Assembly: GCF_002584535.1 (NCBI RefSeq) | Contig: NZ_NUOT01000035.1 | Span: forward strand, 1 to 64,000 | Direction: 5' to 3' | DNA from: Bacillus cereus | GTDB taxonomy: Bacteria; Bacillota; Bacilli; Bacillales; Bacillaceae_G | DNA: 64,000 nt | Part shown: positions 34,758 to 60,468 of the stretch, one piece after another | Numbering within the stretch: position 1 is the stretch's first letter | Layout of the letters: each line of letters starts with the position of its first letter | The notes under the pieces: model-generated | The model's database searches: none | Told to the model about the DNA's origin: nothing | The model's input: the letters and a program-made list of their open reading frames with translations, nothing else | Made by a program: the position numbers and the translations under genes

Positions 34758-35849
34758 TTGAAAATGAACTATGATGAAAATCCTTTTATTGTGATATGAG
34801 AAGTTACACGAGCTTGCGAATTAAAATGCTTGCATTGTCGAGCTGAAGCGCAGTATAGGAGAGATCCGAGAGAATTAACTTTTCTTGAGGGACAGAAATT
34901 AATTGATGAAATATATGAAATGAACCAGCCGATGCTAGTCTTTTCAGGCGGGGACCCGCTTATGAGAGAAGATATTTATAAGCTAGCAGATTATGCAGTG
35001 CAAAAAGGATTACGTGTTTCGATGACGCCTAGTGCGACTCCGAATGTGACGAAAAAGGCCATTCAAAAGGCAAAGGAAGTTGGACTTGCACGCTGGGCCT
35101 TTAGTGTGGATGGTGCTACAGCTGAGACACACGATCGTTTTCGCGGCACGGCAGGATCTTTTCAGCTTACGATGGATGCGATTCAATATTTAAATGAATT
35201 ACAGATTCCTGTGCAAATTAATACAACCATTTCTAAGTACAATATTCATGAAGTAGAGGAGATGGCAACACTTGTTGAACAATTAGGTGGTGTGCTATGG
35301 AGCGTATTTTTCCTTGTTCCAACTGGAAGAGGAAATATAGATGATATGATTTCGCCGGCAGAACATGAACTTGTATTTCACAAATTATATAAAATAGGGA
35401 AAAAGGCTTCATTTGATATAAAGACAACGGCTGCTCAGCATTACCGGCGCGTTGTGATGCAGCAAAAAAATAATCGGAAAATTCGTTATGAAGATGCACT
35501 GTAAAATGGTTTAACTGGAAAAATTGATGGTTTAGGACGAGCACCCAAAGGAGTTAATGATGGGAATGGTTTTGTGTTTATTTCACACATTGGCGATGTA
35601 TATCCTAGTGGATTATTACCGATTCAAGCTGGGAACGTGAAAGAGCAGCGTTTACGGGATATTTATCGTGATTCTCCAATTTTTCAAGCTTTACGTGATC
35701 CAGATAGCTATAAAGGGAAGTGCGGGAAATGTGAATACCGCTATATATGTGGTGGTTCGCGCTCTAGAGCGTATGCAATAACGGGTGATTATTTAGAAAG
35801 TGAGCCATATTGTGTATATGTACCGAAAGTTTTACGAAGAAAAATATGA
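34758..35849 (+). pseudogene. Radical SAM/SPASM protein gene with two in-frame stops
   Basis: One reading frame runs from TTG 34758/ATG 34764 to TGA-side end 35849 but contains TGA at 34797-34799 and TAA at 35502-35504. The first stop falls in FIVI*EVTRACELKCLHC, where the family has Trp, so TGG became TGA. The second lies in DAL*NGLTGKIDGLG. The radical SAM Cys set (CELKCLHC) and a C-terminal SPASM Cys set (CGKCEYRYICGG) are otherwise intact. The family resembles the NirJ/TIGR04053 peptide- or haem-modifying group. Reinitiation could yield fragments only. Two separate stops argue for a true pseudogene. The sequence is too well kept to be old. Confidence 0.85.
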
Positions 35850-50955: not shown

Positions 50956-51633
50956 TTAGTTATGAATCGCTTTGAACATGAGCGCACCATTGTTTTCAGT
51001 AACAGTTAATGTACCGTTAATTGCTTGAGTTGAGAATTGCTTGGTTTGAAAGTAATCTTTCGAACCAAGTCTTTCTAATATGTTATTTAAATCTTGTTCG
51101 CTTAGAGATGAATCTAGAGAACGAATAACAGTCTTTATTGTGGAATAAAAGGCATCGATTTGTTCCTTAGATGTACCTGATCCAGCGATAGCAACAGCGG
51201 CAATTCCACCAGTTGCTTTATAAATGGAAACGCCTAATCCAAATGTAGTATTAAATGTTCCATTATATGTCGCGATTTGTGTTGTTTCAGAAAAGAGTTT
51301 AATGTTACTGATGCTAATACCATTTGAACTGCCAACTGAGTTAATTGCATTTACTAGCTTTTGCATGATTTGAGCCGTATCTACTGAAGCTGGTGGCGGA
51401 GTTGGATTAGGTGGCGGAGTTGGATTAGGTGGTGGAGTTGGATTAGGTGGTGGGGTTGGATTAGGTGGTGGAGTTGGGATAGGTTGTGGGGTTGGACTAG
51501 GTGTAGGGGCTGGCTTTGGCTCAGGCTTCGCTTCAGATTTTTCTGCGGGCTTTGTGTCCTTCTGCCCTGTGTCACACGCTGTTGCTCCAAATAGAAGAGG
51601 AATAGCTAATAAAGTAAGAAATAATTTTTTCAT
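50956..51633 (-). CDS. Lipoprotein with proline-rich repeat spacer
   Basis: 225 residues from ATG (51633) behind AAGGAAGTGG; the longer frame upstream is not used. A lipobox (ATAC, Cys about residue 19) is followed by a Lys/Glu segment, a Pro-Thr-rich stalk of about 45 residues with PTPPPN units, and a C-terminal domain of about 140 residues (VDTAQIMQKLVNAINSVG...) that looks compact and helical/beta. The stalk likely holds the domain away from the membrane through the wall. The domain is not recognised. The coding repeat is 18 bp per unit. Confidence 0.75.
   Translation of the reverse strand: MKKLFLTLLAIPLLFGATACDTGQKDTKPAEKSEAKPEPKPAPTPSPTPQPIPTPPPNPTPPPNPTPPPNPTPPPNPTPPPASVDTAQIMQKLVNAINSVGSSNGISISNIKLFSETTQIATYNGTFNTTFGLGVSIYKATGGIAAVAIAGSGTSKEQIDAFYSTIKTVIRSLDSSLSEQDLNNILERLGSKDYFQTKQFSTQAINGTLTVTENNGALMFKAIHN
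51399..51475 (-). repeat. 18-bp coding tandem repeat (PTPPPN units)
   Basis: Four to five tandem units of the 18-bp motif reading GGTGGAGTTGGATTAGG on the plus strand, differing at only a few positions. Such arrays often vary in copy number. Confidence 0.75.
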
Positions 51634-51821
51634 GTGTCCACTTCCTTTCAAAAGGATAAGGTGATTAAAAAAGGATAACATCAATATATGCACAACAGAT
51701 GGAGAAGGATTACTGCGAATAAGCATATTATGAAAAATAAATGAAAAGTATAGTTATGGTTAGTAAAGTAGGAGAGAGTTTTGTACAATAGAAATGAAGC
51801 AAATATAGGAGGGAAACTATC

Positions 51822-52162: not shown

Positions 52163-52239
52163 GTACGTATGAGAACAGGCACTTATAGAAAACGAGCTAA
52201 TAAGATAATAAAAACTTAAAAAGAAAGGAGTGTTCTGAC

Positions 52240-55200
52240 TTGGGATTTCCAAGTGGTGTACAATTTACGCCAGTTTTAGTGAATGGAAATGTATATACTG
52301 ATATTGTCGGAGATCAGTCTCCTGCAAGTACGGATATTGTTGGTACTTCTTCGTTTCCGGCGCTTTACTACGCATACGATGGAGTAAATATATACTTTCG
52401 CTTACGCTTAAACGCAGATCCACGTAACAGTAAGCTAACAGGTTTCCAAAACTATGCGTGGGGTATTTTGTTTAATACAACGGGTACAGTGGGCACATAT
52501 CAATGGTTATTAAATGTAGATGGGAATCGGAATTCAGTAAACTTAATTCAAAATGTAATAGAGGAGTTCAATTCTTGGAACGATTCTGCTGAAGGAATAG
52601 ATGGGCGAGGTGCGCCTAATTTTAGTCGACCGATTGTAAACTTTGACGTAGCTCGCGTTGTACAAGCCGATTCTAGTTTAGGCGGAAATCCAGATTATTT
52701 TTTAGATTTTTTCATAGATACTTCTACTTTATTTTCTTTTTTAGGAATTACTATAAATTCAAACGTCCGTCTACTCGCCTTTACCTCTGCAAATTCTAAT
52801 AATTATAATAAGGATTCTTTGCAAACAGCAGAAGGATTTCCATTTGAACATGCACAATCGAATTCACTTCTTGCAAGTAAAGGAGATGTAAGAGCGGAAT
52901 TGAGCATAGAAAAAACATTAATATCTGGGCCAACTTTCATTTTAAATGGAGTGCAAGGACAATGGGCGGGAAGTATTCGAGTAACGAATGTTGGTAAAAG
53001 CACAGCGACGACAGTGTTTGTCAATGATGTTATTTCTCTAGATCTTCTTAACTCTGTTCAAATCACGAGTGTCTCACTTGGAACGACAGTAATTAATGGG
53101 GATACCATAACATGGAATATCGGGAATTTACCTGCTGGTTCGAGCGCTACGTTACAATTTGGTCAAAAAGGCAGTTTTACTATACCTGGAAGCCGTACAT
53201 TAAATACAGCAACAGCTACAGGAATTGATAGTTATTCAGGTGGAGCGCTTGCTGCTGTTCAAAGCAGCCTTACAGTCACTGCTCAAGCGACTGGAGGAGT
53301 GACTGGTACTGTGACTGATAGTGTAACAGGAGTACCTATTAATGGAGCAAATGTTCAAATTTTATTAAACGGGAATCCAGTGGCAACAACTGTAACAGAT
53401 GCTTCTGGTATATATAGCTTAACGGATATTGCGCCGAATACGAATTCTGTCGTGCAAATTATGACTTCAAATTATACTACCATTTCACAACCTCTCTCTA
53501 TTCAATCTAATGTAACGTCGGTGTTAAATATAACTTTATCTCCTGTTCCAGGTAATATTCAAGGAACTGTTAGGAATAACCAAACTAATACACCAATCGA
53601 TGGTGCAACTGTAACGGTTACAAATGTGTTAGGTGCAATCATAACACAAACGATAACAGATGGTAGCGGTCAATATGTAGTTAATTCTATTGTACCTGGA
53701 ACTTATCATGTCGCGGTGTCTGCAACTACTTATCAATCTCAAGTACAGTCGGTATTAGTGCCAGCAAATGCAAGCGTAACAGTAGATTGTTTGCTTATTT
53801 CTAACCCTGGTAGTATGCAAGGGTTTGTGAGAGATAGTGTAACCAATATAGCTATAGTAGGAGCAACTGCTATTTTACGTGATAATAATGGAATCCTTGT
53901 TGGTACAACAACTACGGATGGTACAGGAGTATATATATTTAATGCATTAGCACCAGGGGCTTACTGCATTTCAGTAAATGCAGTAAATTATGATACACAA
54001 ACGGTAGGGAGCACAGTATCTTCAAATCAAACAACAAATGTTGATATAGACTTAACAGCTAATCCAGGAACATTATCAGGGACTGTGACAGATTCTAAAA
54101 CGGGTACAGGGGTTAACCGAGTAACAATACGTGTCGTGAATCAGTTTGGTATTACTGTTACGACAGTGCAAACAAATAATACGGGAGAATACACAATTCC
54201 ATCCTTATCTCAAGGAACATACTCTGTGACATTTGCTGCAGAGGGATATGGTACACAAACAATTGGAGCTATAATTGTTTCTAATCAAGTATCAACGACA
54301 AACGTTGCTCTTTTTCCTTTAGCAGGAAGTGTAATAGGAACTGTGATTGATAGTCAAACCAATATACCAATAAGTACGGCGGCAGTTGCTATATTCTTAA
54401 ATAATGTTTTAATAGCCAATACCGTTACTGATAGTACGGGTAACTATACGATGGCAGGATTGGTACCAGGTAATTATACGGTAACATTTACTGATGAAAA
54501 TTATGGTACACAAACAATTGGAGCCATCATACAAGCGAATACGATAATTAATGTAAATGGATCATTATCTCTATTACCAGGTAGTTTGCTAGGTAGTGTT
54601 AGCGGAGGAAATCAACCTATGGCAGGAGCGGTAGTCGTTGTTCGGGATGGGGTTTCTGATACGATTGTAGCTCGCAGTGTAACGGATAGTAATGGAGTAT
54701 ATACGATCCAAAATTTAGCGCGGGGAGCATATAACGTAACAGTATCCGCTACTGATTTTCAAACGAGTATGAAAGGAACCGTTATTTCAGCAAACACTCC
54801 TTCTAATCTTAATTTTGTATTGTTACCAATTCCAGCAACGATTACAGGCACAATTACAAATGCACAAACCGGAACGCCTATTGCCAGTACGAATGTAGAA
54901 GTGCGGGTGCTTGATGCGAATGGGGTGTTAATTGCCTCTGTTTTCAGTGATAGGAATGGCATTTATTCTGTTCAAAATTTAGGGTCTGGTACGTATAGTG
55001 TTGTAGTATCCGCAGCAAATTTTCAAGTTAATATTATGACAATTAAGTTGACACCTGGAGAAATAGACACAGCTAATATAGCGTTGTTACCAGATCCGGG
55101 GTTTATTATGGGCAATGTAAAAGGTGTCATAACAAATGCTCCTATACCAGGAGCGGCTGCTAACATTTCGGATAGTAATGGAGTATTGGTAGATACAGTT

Positions 55201-58200
55201 CTTACTGATACAAACGGAAGTTTTATGACAGTCGGCTTATCTCCTGGTATGTATACAGTTACGGTCATTGCTCAAGATTATCAAAATCAAATCATTGGAG
55301 CGATTGTGACAGCTGATGTTACAACGCCTGTTTCAGTAGTGCTGCAACCAAATCCGGGACAAATTACAGGAGTTATAACACCTACCAACATAGACGCCAT
55401 TGTACAGTTGTATACAACAGATAACTTATTTATTAATAGTATCGCAGTAGATGAAAACGGAAACTATCAATTTATGAATTTAGCACCCGGTATGTACATT
55501 ATAAAGGCGGTAGCACAAAATTATGCAGTATCTCAGGCAGGAGTGACTGTTATTTCTGCTCAAACGCCAATTGTAAATTTAACAATAAATCCAAATCCGG
55601 CTCAAATTCAAGGAATGATTCAAAGTAACGCTGGAGATCCTATTGTAAATGCTACGGTCAAAATAATAGATGCTGGTGAAACGATTATTGGTATTGGCTT
55701 AACGAATCAAGAGGGACGATACAGTATTGGAAGTATACCACCAGGTAGTTACAACGTTATTGCTACAGCTCCAAAGTTTCAGAGTGAACAACGTGGAATA
55801 TTTGTTAATGCAAATCAGAGCGTTACAAATTTTGATTTTATATTACAGTCAAATCCAGGGGCAATATCTGCCCAAGTTACAGATGAAATGACGGAAAATC
55901 CATTAGCAGGAGCAACAGTTTTAATTAGAAACAGCCAAGATGTGTTAATTGCATCTACTGTAACAAGTCCATTTGGTAACGTTATTGTTTCAGGATTAAA
56001 AGAAGGAAACTATACAGTTGCAGCTACTGTAACGAATTATGCTACGGAAATTACAGGAGTAATTGTAAGAAGTGATGAGATAACAGGAGCGAATATTTCA
56101 TTAACAAGTACAGTAGGGAGTATTAACGGTACAGTAGTCGATGAGAATCAAAATCCAGTTATAGGGGCAAATATTCAAGTTCGTTTATTAAATGGAACGG
56201 GAATATCACTTCAATCTTTTTTAGCAAATCCAGATGGAACATTTGTTATACAAGGCTTGGCACTAGGACAGTATTTGTTAAATGTAACAGCACCTAATTA
56301 TGGGGGAAGAACAGTATCTGTAATGGTAGAAGCTAATCAAACAACCAATATAATTGTTCCGTTAGCCTCTTTATTAGGTACGATTATCGGCACTATTACA
56401 GATAAACAAACAGGAGCGGGCATTAGCGGTAGTACGGTTACAGTAACATCTAATACGGGTATCTTCTTAGGAAAAGGTATCACAGATGAGAATGGTAATT
56501 ATACTATTAGGAACTTACCGCACGGAATAGTGAATATTACAGTTGTAGCTCCGTCTTATGGAAGTTCAGGAACAACGACCACATTATTGGCAGATGAGAT
56601 ACAAAATGTTTCAATTGCTTTGCAGGAAGATGCTGGTGTAATTACAGGGTTTGTAACAGATTTCAACACCGCTTTACCACTTCCTGGTGCGAATATCGTT
56701 ATTACAACATTAGGAAACATTGTAATTGCAACTACTGTGGTGGGGCAAACAGGAAGATATCATGTAGATGGATTGGCGCCGGGTTCTTATCGTGTAGTAG
56801 CAAGTGAACCTCAATATTCAACCGCTGTATTAACGGTAAATGTCATTTCGGATACAGAGGCATTGGCTAGTTTTGTATTATCTCCAGACCCAGGATATGT
56901 TTCAGGAGTTGTAACAGAAGACCTAATGGACGGGGTGCCTTTAAGGAATATTAATATTCAGGTTCGTTATTTAACAATAAGCGGCCCTGTTATTCAAACA
57001 TTATTAACAGATAGTGAAGGAAGATATATAACAAGTGGGTTATCTCCTGGTACGTATGTATTAACTGCATTTAGTAGTGAATATGGTGATCAAACTTCTT
57101 CGGTTTTGGTAACAAGTGATACAACAACGATATTGAATTTTGTTCTTTCACCCAATACAGCTTTCTTGCGAGGAACGGTGACAGATAGTAGTGCGATACC
57201 GCTTCCAAGTACGATTGTTCGATTATTTGATAGTAATAATGCACTTACGCAGGCAACGGAAACAAATGCAAATGGTTTATATGGCTTTACTGGAATTACA
57301 CCCGGAGCATACACAATTGTTGCTATTCACCCAAACTTTGAGAGACAGCAAATTGCTTTTACAGCAACGCCTAATGAAACAGCAACTGTAAATTTTGTTT
57401 TAAGTGGAATTCCAGGTACTCTTGTAGGAACTGTGAAGGATAGTGAAACAAATACACCGCTTGTAGGAGCGCTTGTGGAAGTATTTCCAAGTGGCGGTAC
57501 ACTAGCTGTAGCACGCAGAACGACTGATGGAACGGGGCAGTTTAACATTTCAAGCTTAGTATCCGGGAACTATACAGTAGTAGCGTCTAATTTAAATTAT
57601 GAATCTCAAACGGTTGGAGCAATTATTGTCCCTGGAGAGATAACGAATGTCGAGGTTATTTTGCTTCTCGATCCAGCTATAGTTTCAGGGACGGTTACAG
57701 AATTAAATGGAAACCCTATAAATAATGCTGGTCTTTCTTTCTTCAATCAAAGTGGAATTTTAATTGGATCCACGGTAACGGATGTGAATGGAAATTATGT
57801 AATGGGGGGATTACCAGCAGGATCGTATACAGTAGTAGCATCGGCTCCTCAATTTGCACATGTAAGTAAAGGGTTGATAGTGGCTCCAGGACAAAATATA
57901 AGGAACTTTAACTTTGAATTAAGTAGAGATGTTGGAAAAATCGTAGGTACTATCACGGGAGATGGGATATCATTGGTAGGGGTAACAGTTTCTCTACTTG
58001 AAGATAATGTATTTATTGTATCGACAGTCACCAAAAGCGATGGAACATATATGTTTGAAAATATCGCTCCTGGAGCCTATACAGTCTCTGCTAGTGCTTC
58101 AGGTTTTGGAGTAAATCAAGTAGGAGCAGTTCTACAAGTGAATATGGTCACAGAAGCGAATATAGATTTACATTTTTTGATAGGAACGATTGCTGGAACT

Positions 58201-59958
58201 GTGACGGATACCTCAGGAATGCCAATTGTAAATATAGCTGTTACAATTCAAGTTTTTAATATAAATGGGCAGTTGCTTCGTAAAGTGCAAGCAGACCATA
58301 CAGGTGTATTTGTAGTAACAGGATTAGTTCCTGGATCTTATGTCTTGACGGCAAGTGCTCCTCAGTACCAAACAAATACAGTAGGGGCAAATGTAAAAGC
58401 AAATGAGGTAACAAATGTAGAGGTGTCTTTACTAGCAGCGGCAGGAGCCATTGCTGGAACTGTTGTAGAGTTTGGGACGAATGAACCAATTGTAGGAAGT
58501 AGCGTGAAGATTACAGATATAAATGGTTTTATTATCGGAACAGCAGTTACAGATGAGAGCGGTCGATTTCGCATTGAAAGTCTTCTTGTTGGTACCGTAA
58601 ATGTGATAGCAACTGCAGAGGGATATACCTCAATTTCTCGTGCAGCCATTATTCCTCTAAATACGACTGTTGATATTATATTGTCATTACAGTTAAATCC
58701 TGGTCGCATTGTTGGAACGATTACCGATATTCAAGGTTTTCCAATAAGTGGAGCAGTTATTACTGTAATTGATGGTACAACCGCAGTGATTACGAAGGTT
58801 CTGACGCAAAATGATGGAAGTTACCGCGTGGAATCTCTTACGCCAGGAGCATACACAATTTTAGTTAATGCTACTGGATTTGGTCAGGGGATCTCGAGTG
58901 GAGTTGTAGCATCAGGAGGTACGACGGATGTTTCTTTACAATTAATGGGGAATACAGGGGCGATTGCTGGAGCTGTTCAAGATAGCGAGACTGGTTTACC
59001 TATTAAAGGAGCAGCCATTCAAATCCGTTTGATTAATCCATCAGGACCAATTGTATTGACTACAGTAACAGATACAGGTGGGAATTTTGTAGCTCCAAAC
59101 TTAAACCCAGGATTTTATGCAGTCGTTGCTTTTGCGGAAGACTATGGAAGTAACGTAGCTTCTGTTCAAGTAGTAATAAACGAAACAGCCACTGTTGCAT
59201 TATCTCTATCAAGCTTAGTTGGGGCTGTAAGAGGTACGGTAGTGGATGAGGCATTAGAGTTGCCTCTAGTAGATACATTGATTAGACTTACTAGTGAAAG
59301 TGGGATTGTACTTCGAGAAGTACAGACAGATGTAACAGGGAATTATTTTATTGATAATATTACCCGAGGAAATTATACACTGGTATTTATTAATGCTAAT
59401 TATCAAAATGTTGTTGTATCTGTGACGGTAGTAGCAAATGAAACAAAGATAATAAGTGTTACTTTACAGCCTTATCCAGCTTCTATCGCAGGAACAGTAG
59501 TTGACGCGAATTCAAGTGCACCGCTTATTGGTGCTGTGGTTCAAGTACTAAATGCAAATGGTCAATTTATTACCAATGCAATTTCAAATACAGAAGGAAG
59601 GTATAGCATAACAGGATTAGCAGAGGGAACGCATACGGTTGTTGCAATTACGCAAGGCTACATCGCAAGTAGTCTTAATATTTCATTAACACCAGGGACC
59701 GCTGCTCAAGTTGATTTTCAATTGATTACAAATCATGCATCTATTCAAGGAGAGATCATTGATCGAAATGGAAATCCAGTCAATAATGCTCTTGTCCGAG
59801 TATTAGATCAAAGTGGAGTATTCATCAATTCTGGTGTATCGGATGCAAATGGAATGTATATTGTTGGAAATATGCCATCCGGGACGCTTCAGGTTATTGT
59901 TTCAGCAAAAGGTTTTCAGAGTGTAACACGATTTATAACGGTACGTGCTGGTGAGTAG
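52240..59958 (+). CDS. Giant carboxypeptidase-regulatory-like repeat protein (main part, 2572 aa)
   Basis: Starts at TTG (52240) with AAAGGAG. Residues 1-220 form an unrecognised N-terminal domain (a DOMON-like or other beta fold cannot be excluded). About 225-345 is a DUF11-type beta domain (IRVTNVGKSTATTVFVNDVI...GNLPAGSSATLQF). From about 350 come some 26 repeats of about 80 residues, each opening G-I-x-G-T-V-T-D...P-I-x-G-A and passing through ...T-x-T-D-x-x-G-x-Y...L-x-P-G-x-Y: carboxypeptidase regulatory-like folds, likely a long fibre of beta sandwiches. There is no signal peptide, membrane helix or wall anchor, so export route and site are unclear. An exosporium or spore-surface role is a guess. 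The frame is stopped by TAG at 59956-59958. Confidence 0.85.
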   Translation: MGFPSGVQFTPVLVNGNVYTDIVGDQSPASTDIVGTSSFPALYYAYDGVNIYFRLRLNADPRNSKLTGFQNYAWGILFNTTGTVGTYQWLLNVDGNRNSVNLIQNVIEEFNSWNDSAEGIDGRGAPNFSRPIVNFDVARVVQADSSLGGNPDYFLDFFIDTSTLFSFLGITINSNVRLLAFTSANSNNYNKDSLQTAEGFPFEHAQSNSLLASKGDVRAELSIEKTLISGPTFILNGVQGQWAGSIRVTNVGKSTATTVFVNDVISLDLLNSVQITSVSLGTTVINGDTITWNIGNLPAGSSATLQFGQKGSFTIPGSRTLNTATATGIDSYSGGALAAVQSSLTVTAQATGGVTGTVTDSVTGVPINGANVQILLNGNPVATTVTDASGIYSLTDIAPNTNSVVQIMTSNYTTISQPLSIQSNVTSVLNITLSPVPGNIQGTVRNNQTNTPIDGATVTVTNVLGAIITQTITDGSGQYVVNSIVPGTYHVAVSATTYQSQVQSVLVPANASVTVDCLLISNPGSMQGFVRDSVTNIAIVGATAILRDNNGILVGTTTTDGTGVYIFNALAPGAYCISVNAVNYDTQTVGSTVSSNQTTNVDIDLTANPGTLSGTVTDSKTGTGVNRVTIRVVNQFGITVTTVQTNNTGEYTIPSLSQGTYSVTFAAEGYGTQTIGAIIVSNQVSTTNVALFPLAGSVIGTVIDSQTNIPISTAAVAIFLNNVLIANTVTDSTGNYTMAGLVPGNYTVTFTDENYGTQTIGAIIQANTIINVNGSLSLLPGSLLGSVSGGNQPMAGAVVVVRDGVSDTIVARSVTDSNGVYTIQNLARGAYNVTVSATDFQTSMKGTVISANTPSNLNFVLLPIPATITGTITNAQTGTPIASTNVEVRVLDANGVLIASVFSDRNGIYSVQNLGSGTYSVVVSAANFQVNIMTIKLTPGEIDTANIALLPDPGFIMGNVKGVITNAPIPGAAANISDSNGVLVDTVLTDTNGSFMTVGLSPGMYTVTVIAQDYQNQIIGAIVTADVTTPVSVVLQPNPGQITGVITPTNIDAIVQLYTTDNLFINSIAVDENGNYQFMNLAPGMYIIKAVAQNYAVSQAGVTVISAQTPIVNLTINPNPAQIQGMIQSNAGDPIVNATVKIIDAGETIIGIGLTNQEGRYSIGSIPPGSYNVIATAPKFQSEQRGIFVNANQSVTNFDFILQSNPGAISAQVTDEMTENPLAGATVLIRNSQDVLIASTVTSPFGNVIVSGLKEGNYTVAATVTNYATEITGVIVRSDEITGANISLTSTVGSINGTVVDENQNPVIGANIQVRLLNGTGISLQSFLANPDGTFVIQGLALGQYLLNVTAPNYGGRTVSVMVEANQTTNIIVPLASLLGTIIGTITDKQTGAGISGSTVTVTSNTGIFLGKGITDENGNYTIRNLPHGIVNITVVAPSYGSSGTTTTLLADEIQNVSIALQEDAGVITGFVTDFNTALPLPGANIVITTLGNIVIATTVVGQTGRYHVDGLAPGSYRVVASEPQYSTAVLTVNVISDTEALASFVLSPDPGYVSGVVTEDLMDGVPLRNINIQVRYLTISGPVIQTLLTDSEGRYITSGLSPGTYVLTAFSSEYGDQTSSVLVTSDTTTILNFVLSPNTAFLRGTVTDSSAIPLPSTIVRLFDSNNALTQATETNANGLYGFTGITPGAYTIVAIHPNFERQQIAFTATPNETATVNFVLSGIPGTLVGTVKDSETNTPLVGALVEVFPSGGTLAVARRTTDGTGQFNISSLVSGNYTVVASNLNYESQTVGAIIVPGEITNVEVILLLDPAIVSGTVTELNGNPINNAGLSFFNQSGILIGSTVTDVNGNYVMGGLPAGSYTVVASAPQFAHVSKGLIVAPGQNIRNFNFELSRDVGKIVGTITGDGISLVGVTVSLLEDNVFIVSTVTKSDGTYMFENIAPGAYTVSASASGFGVNQVGAVLQVNMVTEANIDLHFLIGTIAGTVTDTSGMPIVNIAVTIQVFNINGQLLRKVQADHTGVFVVTGLVPGSYVLTASAPQYQTNTVGANVKANEVTNVEVSLLAAAGAIAGTVVEFGTNEPIVGSSVKITDINGFIIGTAVTDESGRFRIESLLVGTVNVIATAEGYTSISRAAIIPLNTTVDIILSLQLNPGRIVGTITDIQGFPISGAVITVIDGTTAVITKVLTQNDGSYRVESLTPGAYTILVNATGFGQGISSGVVASGGTTDVSLQLMGNTGAIAGAVQDSETGLPIKGAAIQIRLINPSGPIVLTTVTDTGGNFVAPNLNPGFYAVVAFAEDYGSNVASVQVVINETATVALSLSSLVGAVRGTVVDEALELPLVDTLIRLTSESGIVLREVQTDVTGNYFIDNITRGNYTLVFINANYQNVVVSVTVVANETKIISVTLQPYPASIAGTVVDANSSAPLIGAVVQVLNANGQFITNAISNTEGRYSITGLAEGTHTVVAITQGYIASSLNISLTPGTAAQVDFQLITNHASIQGEIIDRNGNPVNNALVRVLDQSGVFINSGVSDANGMYIVGNMPSGTLQVIVSAKGFQSVTRFITVRAGE

Positions 59959-60468
59959 TTGACAAATATAGATTTTATTTTAGAATGGGATAGTTTTGGA
60001 GAAATTAAAGGGAACGTATATAACCAACTTACGAATGAACCGGTTGTAAATGCTACAGTTGAAGTGCGAAATTCTTTTGGTACGATAGTTACTGTGTATA
60101 CAGATAGATTTGGGGATTTTAGTATTTCTTCTCTTGCTGCCGGTTCTTACACTCTGATAATTTTGGCACAACCTTTTCAAACAAAGACAATTACAGTGAA
60201 CGTGGAGTTAGGTGAAATAACTCGTGTTACAGTTGGCTTAGATCCAACCTTTATTCCACCCTTTCCAAGAAAAGCAATATATATTATTCTTTTAAAAGAG
60301 ACAGGAAAGGCATTAAGTCTTCCTTGTGCTTCAAATCCAACAATATTTCATTTAGTGAAATTGGATGAAAATAAGAATTTTGCAATATTCTCCTATGAAG
60401 CAGTGTTAGAGGGATTACAGTATATAACAATAGATCTAAGCTGTGTTTGGATTATAAAAATAAAATAA
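59959..60468 (+). pseudogene. Separated C-terminus of the giant repeat protein
   Basis: In exact frame with the preceding gene, directly after the TAG. It encodes the missing last strand of repeat 26 (TNIDFILEW matches the TNFDFIL end of earlier units), a 27th repeat (FGEIKGNVYNQLTNEPVVNATVEV...) and a unique tail of about 65 residues (KAIYIILLKETGKALSLPC...DLSCVWIIKIK) that no other repeat carries. A TTG right at the junction could restart translation, but there is no ribosome site. The TAG probably replaced a CAG, GAG or AAG codon. Either a fresh nonsense mutation or readthrough explains it. Confidence 0.8.

What the first reader, a model, noticed from the sequence alone, without database searches (positions are those of the whole stretch)
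52240..60468. Giant repeat gene interrupted by a single in-frame TAG before its last repeat
TAG at 59956-59958 splits one frame of about 2740 codons. The sequence after it is in exact frame, finishes repeat 26, adds a 27th repeat and a unique tail. Counted by eye, 26 carboxypeptidase-regulatory-like units precede the stop. No other frame disruption is visible in over 8 kb, so the stop is very recent, programmed, suppressed or a sequencing error.
Basis: seen in the sequence. Interest (0 to 1): 0.8.

Follow-up and report, generated by a model that had tools for sequence, protein, structure and literature searches.

The report
Stop codon truncates giant spore-protein gene
A very long repeat gene, probably coding for a fibre on the surface of bacterial spores, carries a stop codon just before its end that cuts off the piece likely to anchor it; this looks like an ordinary damaging mutation, in a gene family for which we found no description.

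Summary
TAG at 59956-59958 splits one frame: 2572 codons with 26 CarboxypepD_reg repeats before it, 169 codons with a 27th repeat and a tail after it.

Relatives settle the anatomy. 35 long homologous frames were read in other Bacillales. In 13 of 35 the tail found after the TAG is the extreme C-terminus of one open frame. Seven of those 13 have exactly 27 repeats, the window's total (26+1); same-number repeats are best matches at 12 to 18 of 27 positions. The real gene end is therefore TAA 60466-60468, and TAG is an internal nonsense codon.

The tail belongs with small Cys-rich proteins that are remote relatives of the spore coat/exosporium proteins CotZ/CotY/ExsY. With no secretion signal seen and a sigmaK-like promoter candidate, the gene most likely makes a long spore-surface fibre, and the TAG removes its putative anchor.

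A nonsense mutation in this strain is most likely (0.7). A sequence error is possible (0.15). Programmed or suppressed reading is unsupported: no relative has the stop, and no RNA structure was found near it. A second gene in the window carries two in-frame stops. Same-species genomes and raw reads were not available, so age and frequency are unknown.

The parts
52181..52207 (+). sigmaK-like promoter candidate (AC, 16 nt, AATAAGATA; 5 of 6 consensus bases), -10 element 41 nt before the start codon
   Evidence: in 8 of 36 upstream regions (the window's included) a site with at least 5 of 6 matches lies at -37 to -44; mean 0.54 hits per 7-bp window. Alone, the window site is not significant (31 of 100 shuffles do as well). 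Consensus recalled.
52240..59958 (+). giant gene up to the in-frame TAG, 2572 codons
52240..53289 (+). conserved N-terminal module, about 350 aa, no signal peptide seen by eye; its C-terminal part (52972-53223) matches DUF11
   Evidence: (33 of 397 genomes, three of them weak)
53299..59955 (+). repeats 1-26, CarboxypepD_reg (PF13620) type; repeat 26 core ends at the stop
59956..59958 (+). in-frame TAG
59959..60468 (+). continuation of the same frame, 169 codons and TAA
60004..60216 (+). repeat 27
   Evidence: E 4e-25; PF13620 E 5.7e-15
60250..60465 (+). C-terminal tail domain, about 72 aa, homologous to the C-terminus of 13 of 35 giants and to small Cys-rich CotZ-like proteins

Best explanation
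A nonsense mutation has truncated a giant spore-surface gene in the sequenced strain. The full gene spans about 2742 codons: an N-terminal module with a DUF11-like part, a rod of 27 transthyretin-like repeats, and a C-terminal domain related to CotZ/CotY/ExsY. Shown here: the anatomy, the tail homology and the open frame in relatives. Inferred: the protein is made in the mother cell late in sporulation, the rod forms a fibre on the spore, and the tail locks it into the Cys-rich coat/exosporium lattice. The TAG would give a chain with 26 repeats, the last lacking its final strand, and no anchor: made but poorly attached, or degraded.
For: The tail after the TAG aligns with the extreme C-terminus of 13 of 35 giants, which end 1-4 residues after the match. 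7 of those 13 have exactly 27 repeats, the other six 35 or 36; the window has 26+1. Against the seven 27-repeat relatives, same-number repeats are the best match at 12 to 18 of 27 positions, and the zero-offset diagonal is the best in each of the seven. The tail profile matches small Cys-rich proteins (98.3%, E 1.4e-14), and those match CotZ (91.6%, E 8.4e-7); 0 of 100 column shuffles reach either score. A model of the small proteins, built without the window, finds 59959-60465 (E 1.6e-6). A second gene in the window, radical SAM/SPASM, carries two in-frame stops, and 2 of 35 relatives of the giant and the gene piece L066 are frame-shifted, so lesions in such genes are ordinary. Precedent: bclA1 of C. 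difficile R20291, a spore-surface gene with two nonsense mutations and otherwise kept downstream sequence (PMC13188886, passages read).
Against: No raw reads and no same-species genome, so an error cannot be excluded. The post-stop part shows no clear decay: its tail identity is in line with its N-terminal identity (residual -0.029, range of the 13 others -0.034 to +0.025). It does depart at 2 of 7 tail columns that the 13 others share (others 0 or 1). Direct tail-CotZ comparison is weak (14.9%, E 0.0018), and a CotZ model finds nothing in the window at E 0.1. Repeat 27 is not the best match of repeat 27 in relatives (ranks 5-15). Only 13 of 35 giants carry this tail, and two giants of 74 repeats end without any C-terminal domain, so this anchor is not universal. 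Spore location is not shown.
Confidence: 0.7

Rival explanations
1. Sequence or assembly error: the strain has an intact gene.
For: The frame on both sides is otherwise intact over 8.2 kb and the tail keeps the family pattern.
Against: No homopolymer at the stop; repeats too diverged for a mis-join. A second gene with in-frame stops lies in the same window, which fits real lesions or a poor sequence.
Confidence: 0.15
2. The TAG is read through or suppressed, so that a minority of chains receive the C-terminal anchor.
For: The tail shows no clear decay; TAG ends only 6 of 53 window ORFs, so it is a minor stop.
Against: 0 of 13 full-length tail-bearing relatives and 0 of 6 further ones have a stop before the tail; the seventh further tail, L066, is interrupted by a frame shift instead. 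No unusual RNA fold around the TAG (z 0.15 to 0.34). Five other window ORFs end in TAG, and the second interrupted gene is cut by TGA and TAA, which a TAG suppressor would not read. Suppressor tRNA genes could not be looked for: no genome held.
Confidence: 0.07
3. Termination-reinitiation: ribosomes restart at TTG 59959 and make the repeat 27 + tail piece as a separate protein, like the stand-alone small CotZ-like proteins of other genomes.
For: TTG directly follows the TAG, and GGTGAG lies 7 nt (from its GG) before it; stand-alone proteins with this domain exist.
Against: GGTGA(G/A) is a Gly-Glu codon pair that recurs in the repeats (by eye); the piece lacks the CVC-containing N-terminal part of the small proteins; none of the 13 tail-bearing full-length relatives is arranged so.
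Confidence: 0.06

Closest known systems
CotZ/CotY/ExsY Cys-rich coat and exosporium lattice proteins (PF10612)
   Same: The tail is remotely homologous through the small Cys-rich proteins.
   Different: Window tail is only about 72 aa, has 2 Cys, lacks the CVC...SC N-terminal half and the Cys that all 20 relatives' tails examined keep (by eye); direct profile match weak, CotZ model does not find it.
F-Anchor-3 of Clostridium aceticum (PMC11952670, abstract and passages read)
   Same: One protein with DUF11 modules and a lattice-like domain, proposed by its authors to plug into the exosporium lattice.
   Different: That one has DUF4183 domains and a CsxA-like domain, 0-4 DUF11 domains; this one has a different N-terminal module, 27 CarboxypepD_reg repeats and a CotZ-like tail.
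BclA-type spore-surface filaments with nonsense pseudogenes (PMC13188886, passages read)
   Same: Repetitive spore-surface gene cut by nonsense codons with the downstream part kept.
   Different: Collagen-like repeats, other family, other genus.
'Carboxypeptidase regulatory-like domain-containing protein' of Priestia plasmids
   Same: N-terminal module about 52% identical over 97-99% of it; the name shows the same repeat type.
   Different: C-terminus not compared in full; plasmid-borne.

Membership tests
Giant N-module/CarboxypepD_reg family (defined here) | N-terminal module of about 350 aa | tested here: met
   35 strong places in other genomes, 49-56% identity; 33 of 397 genomes at E <= 0.001 (three of these only weak or partial); best elsewhere 57%
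Giant N-module/CarboxypepD_reg family (defined here) | 27 repeats (or another subfamily-typical number) | tested here: met
   26 before + 1 after the stop; 7 of 13 tail-bearing relatives have 27, six have 35-36
Giant N-module/CarboxypepD_reg family (defined here) | One uninterrupted frame | tested here: not met
   TAG 59956-59958; 2 of 35 relatives and the piece L066 are also broken, by frame shifts
CotZ/CotY/ExsY | Profile homology | tested here: inconclusive
   Through small proteins E 1.4e-14 and 8.4e-7, 0 of 100 shuffles; direct only E 0.0018; Pfam CotZ not hit by the tail, own CotZ model does not hit the window; of 8 small proteins one hits Pfam CotZ, below its cut-off (E 0.0012)
CotZ/CotY/ExsY | Cys-rich, CVC N-terminal part | tested here: not met
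   Two Cys in the window tail; CVC part absent
CotZ/CotY/ExsY | Self-assembly on spores | not testable with these tools
   Known for ExsY/CotY (PMC5434927, passages read); not testable for this tail
Pseudogene by nonsense mutation | Disabling stop with intact relatives | tested here: met
Pseudogene by nonsense mutation | Further decay | tested here: inconclusive
   No second stop or frame shift in 169 codons; about 1.1 extra stops expected at 5% divergence; tail identity not an outlier, but 2 of 7 shared tail columns changed
Programmed stop-codon readthrough | Stop kept in relatives | tested here: not met
   0 of 19 tails in full frames; the twentieth, L066, has a frame shift instead. Same-species genomes not seen
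Programmed stop-codon readthrough | Stimulating RNA structure | tested here: not met
   z 0.15 to 0.34 for three stretches at the stop
Nonsense suppression | Suppressor tRNA in the genome | not testable with these tools
   No whole genome held; no tRNA gene in the window

The most novel reading that the evidence does not exclude
The gene belongs to an undescribed class of giant, non-secreted spore-surface fibres whose length is set by a fixed, positionally conserved array of repeats (27, or 27 plus a block of about 8) and which plug into the coat/exosporium lattice by a CotZ-like C-terminal domain; the strain of the window is a natural anchor-less mutant of it.
Probability: 0.4. Interest if true: 0.6.

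Novelty: new member of a known kind. Interest (0 to 1): 0.4.

Why it matters
The stop itself is an ordinary lesion, of a kind reported in another spore-surface gene. What it exposes is more interesting: a giant protein family of 18 to 76 repeats with a repeat number that hardly varies within subfamilies, and a tail linked to the coat/exosporium lattice proteins. If the spore location holds, fixed-length fibres of this kind would be a new component of spore surfaces, and strains with and without the anchor would be a natural test of what it does.

Tried and rejected
True end at TAG: rejected, since 13 of 35 relatives continue into the same tail. Mis-assembly between repeats: unlikely. Programmed readthrough: not supported. 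Phage or plasmid origin: no phage match to the N-terminal module, no near-identical plasmid match; plasmid relatives are Priestia and one Paenibacillus, under 60% identity.

Led nowhere: scan of genome contigs with the tail found no relative; CotZ Pfam model in 10 chosen genomes with the giant found none; PDB searches with tail, small proteins and N-terminal module gave nothing credible. PDB searches with three neighbour proteins did not identify the species. Literature searches did not show this family (terms as listed there; others returned no paper; for the others listings and starts of abstracts seen). Searches were on readthrough, CotY/ExsY and pseudogenes. No fold search was made.

Weak points: the relatives come from 397 sampled genomes of one order plus family sets of 19 and 34 genomes; three weak N-terminal places (G037, G045, G098) were not fetched. 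The absence of Pfam CotZ in 10 genomes is a chosen set: several genomes with giants of other tail types do have CotZ (G081, G105, G134, G160, G186, G190). The tail and repeat counts use my own models. Start codons in relatives for the promoter test were chosen as the nearest upstream start codon, and the upstream regions are not independent.

Full report
What is there. The frame 52240-59958 begins with TTG behind a ribosome-binding site and ends with TAG at 59956-59958. The same frame continues for 169 codons to TAA 60466-60468. Pfam finds 26 CarboxypepD_reg stretches before the TAG and one after it; a repeat model built here gives the same 26 + 1, with a period of 243-267 nt. An N-terminal module of about 350 aa precedes the repeats; its last part matches DUF11. 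After repeat 27 comes a tail of about 72 aa that no Pfam or NCBIfam model recognises.

Is it more than chance? Of 53 non-overlapping ORFs of at least 100 aa in the window, two have 100 or more open codons in frame beyond their stop: the giant (169) and a radical SAM gene (114). Six of the 53 end in TAG, 40 in TAA, 7 in TGA. The repeats are old: mean amino-acid identity 29%, longest exact DNA repeat 23 bp, so a mis-join between repeats is unlikely.

Relatives. No whole genome is held for the window, and no near relative turned up: the best N-terminal match found was 57%. In 397 genomes of one order (that of Metabacillus indicus), 33 had an N-terminal match at E 0.001 or better. I fetched all 35 strong places and left three weak ones (G037, G045, G098). 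The 35 open frames are 1896 to 7162 codons long, stop to stop. They carry 18 to 76 repeats.

The tail is the real end. Profile search finds the window's tail at the extreme C-terminus of 13 of the 35 frames, 1 to 4 residues before their stop. Seven more tails came from further genomes or places: six lie in open frames of 2748 to 3517 codons. The seventh, L066, comes from a contig piece of G399, the genome with the highest N-terminal identity; there two repeats and the tail are in one frame, but the repeats before them are in another frame, so that gene piece is frame-shifted. None of the 20 shows a stop like the window's. Of the 13, seven have exactly 27 repeats and six have 35 or 36. The window has 27 when both sides of the TAG are counted. 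Against the seven 27-repeat relatives, the same-number pairing is the best offset in each (mean excess 35-50; next best offsets +8 and -8), and the same-number repeat is the single best match at 12 to 18 of 27 positions. Individual ranks are first or nearly so for repeats 4-13, 17 and 24, middling for others, and not first for repeat 27 (ranks 5-15). An offset of 8 also ranks second for the 35- and 36-repeat forms, which suggests a block of eight repeats as the unit of growth (inference).

What the tail is. Used as a profile, the tails also find stand-alone proteins, mostly Cys-rich, in open frames of about 87-165 codons in the same genomes. Profile comparison of tails with nine of these gives 98.3%, E 1.4e-14. 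Those nine against ten CotZ proteins gives 91.6%, E 8.4e-7. Tails directly against CotZ gives only 14.9%, E 0.0018. Column-shuffled controls never reach the true score in 100 trials for each of the three comparisons, and comparisons with the unrelated N-terminal module give E 0.1 to 0.83. A model of the nine small proteins, which contains no window sequence, finds 59959-60465 in the six-frame window (E 1.6e-6), but the CotZ model itself finds nothing there at E 0.1. Of eight small proteins scanned, one hits Pfam CotZ, below its cut-off. In 10 chosen genomes that carry a giant, eight of them with this tail, no Pfam CotZ was found (0 of 10), against 107 of 199 genomes of the order; but several genomes whose giants have other tails do have CotZ (G081, G105, G134, G160, G186, G190). 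The small proteins may take its place where it is missing (inference). ExsY and CotY build the crystalline, disulphide-linked basal layer of the exosporium (PMC5434927, passages read).

Setting. There is no signal peptide by eye, as expected for proteins that the mother cell lays on the spore from inside (established knowledge). A sigmaK-like -10 sequence lies at -37 to -44 in 8 of 36 upstream regions, the window's among them, against 0.54 hits per 7-bp window on average. For the window alone this is not significant (31 of 100 shuffles do as well). Downstream lie DUF2573 and proline dehydrogenase genes. In five other species the stretch around DUF2573 holds no N-terminal module, repeat or tail match (0 of 5 loci, up to 10 kb on each side); proline dehydrogenase is close to DUF2573 in 4 of 5 (the fifth contig ends there).

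How it most likely works. Shown: module, repeats, tail, repeat number shared with half of the tail-bearing relatives (7 of 13), and the stop. Inferred: a rod of 27 beta-sandwich repeats stands on the spore, held by the CotZ-like tail in the Cys-rich lattice. An analogue is F-Anchor-3 of Clostridium aceticum, which combines DUF11 modules with a CsxA-like domain and is proposed by its authors to sit in the exosporium lattice (PMC11952670, abstract and passages read). The TAG would leave a chain without repeat 27 and without the anchor.

Why a nonsense mutation. Intact relatives exist; no relative seen has the stop; there is no unusual RNA fold around it (z 0.15, 0.21, 0.34). Lesions of this kind are not rare here: a radical SAM/SPASM gene in the same window has an in-frame TGA near its start (34797-34799) and an in-frame TAA between its two domains (35502-35504), and 2 of 35 relatives of the giant are frame-shifted with repeats continuing in another frame (L044, L056), as is L066. 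Draft errors could explain some of these. In C. difficile, bclA1 of strain R20291 carries two nonsense mutations with the downstream sequence kept (PMC13188886, passages read).

Results against this reading, or neutral. The piece after the stop shows no clear decay: its tail identity to relatives is what its N-terminal identity predicts (residual -0.029; the 13 others -0.034 to +0.025). It departs at 2 of 7 tail columns shared by the 13 others, which themselves depart at 0 or 1: a Cys, kept in all 20 other tails, and an Arg, kept in 18 of 20 but also lost in L066 and L084 (by eye). About 1.1 further stops would be expected in the 507 nt at 5% neutral divergence, so the stop is probably not old, but no tighter statement is possible. 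Two giants of 74 repeats end without any C-terminal domain.

Verdict. Observation confirmed; interruption of a real gene confirmed by relatives; cause most likely a nonsense mutation in this strain (0.7), with sequence error next (0.15). The stop is ordinary. The gene family, its steady repeat number and its coat-protein-like tail are the part worth following.

Noticed in passing
window 34797-35849 (+): A radical SAM/SPASM gene carries two in-frame stops, TGA 34797-34799 just before the Cys motif and TAA 35502-35504 between its two domains, with no frame shift seen. With the giant's TAG that makes three nonsense codons in two genes of one 64 kb window.
   Followed up: partly
L027-L064 (relatives' giants): Repeat number hardly varies within groups (23, 26, 27, 35-36, 74-76; other forms with 18, 20, 30) and a super-period of 8 repeats shows in the comparison with the window.
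   Followed up: partly
L033, L035, L036, L038, L040, L041, L043, L046, L064: Giants with 23 repeats end in a different, Cys-containing C-terminal region of about 200 aa ('AVCLPEGMD..NVNCSIVD' and similar); Pfam did not recognise it in L033, the only one of these scanned.
   Followed up: partly
L041 (G361): Two giant genes in tandem, open frames of 2533 and 2573 codons.
   Followed up: no
L044, L056 and L066: Relatives interrupted by frame shifts: repeats go on in another frame (18+5 and 37+9; L066). L065 and L066 are pieces of one genome (G399) and may be one gene on two contigs.
   Followed up: partly
L085-L096 and others: Small Cys-rich proteins related to CotZ in genomes where the CotZ Pfam model finds nothing (0 of 10 chosen genomes); a possible unrecognised branch of the crust/exosporium family.
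   Followed up: partly
window 59959-59986 (+): A sigma70-like site (11 of 12) starts at the base after the TAG; promoter-like sites in the region are no more frequent than in shuffles, so probably chance.
   Followed up: no
window 50956-51726 (-): Lipoprotein-like protein (by eye) with a run of PPPNPT repeats just upstream of the giant; no Pfam family.
   Followed up: no
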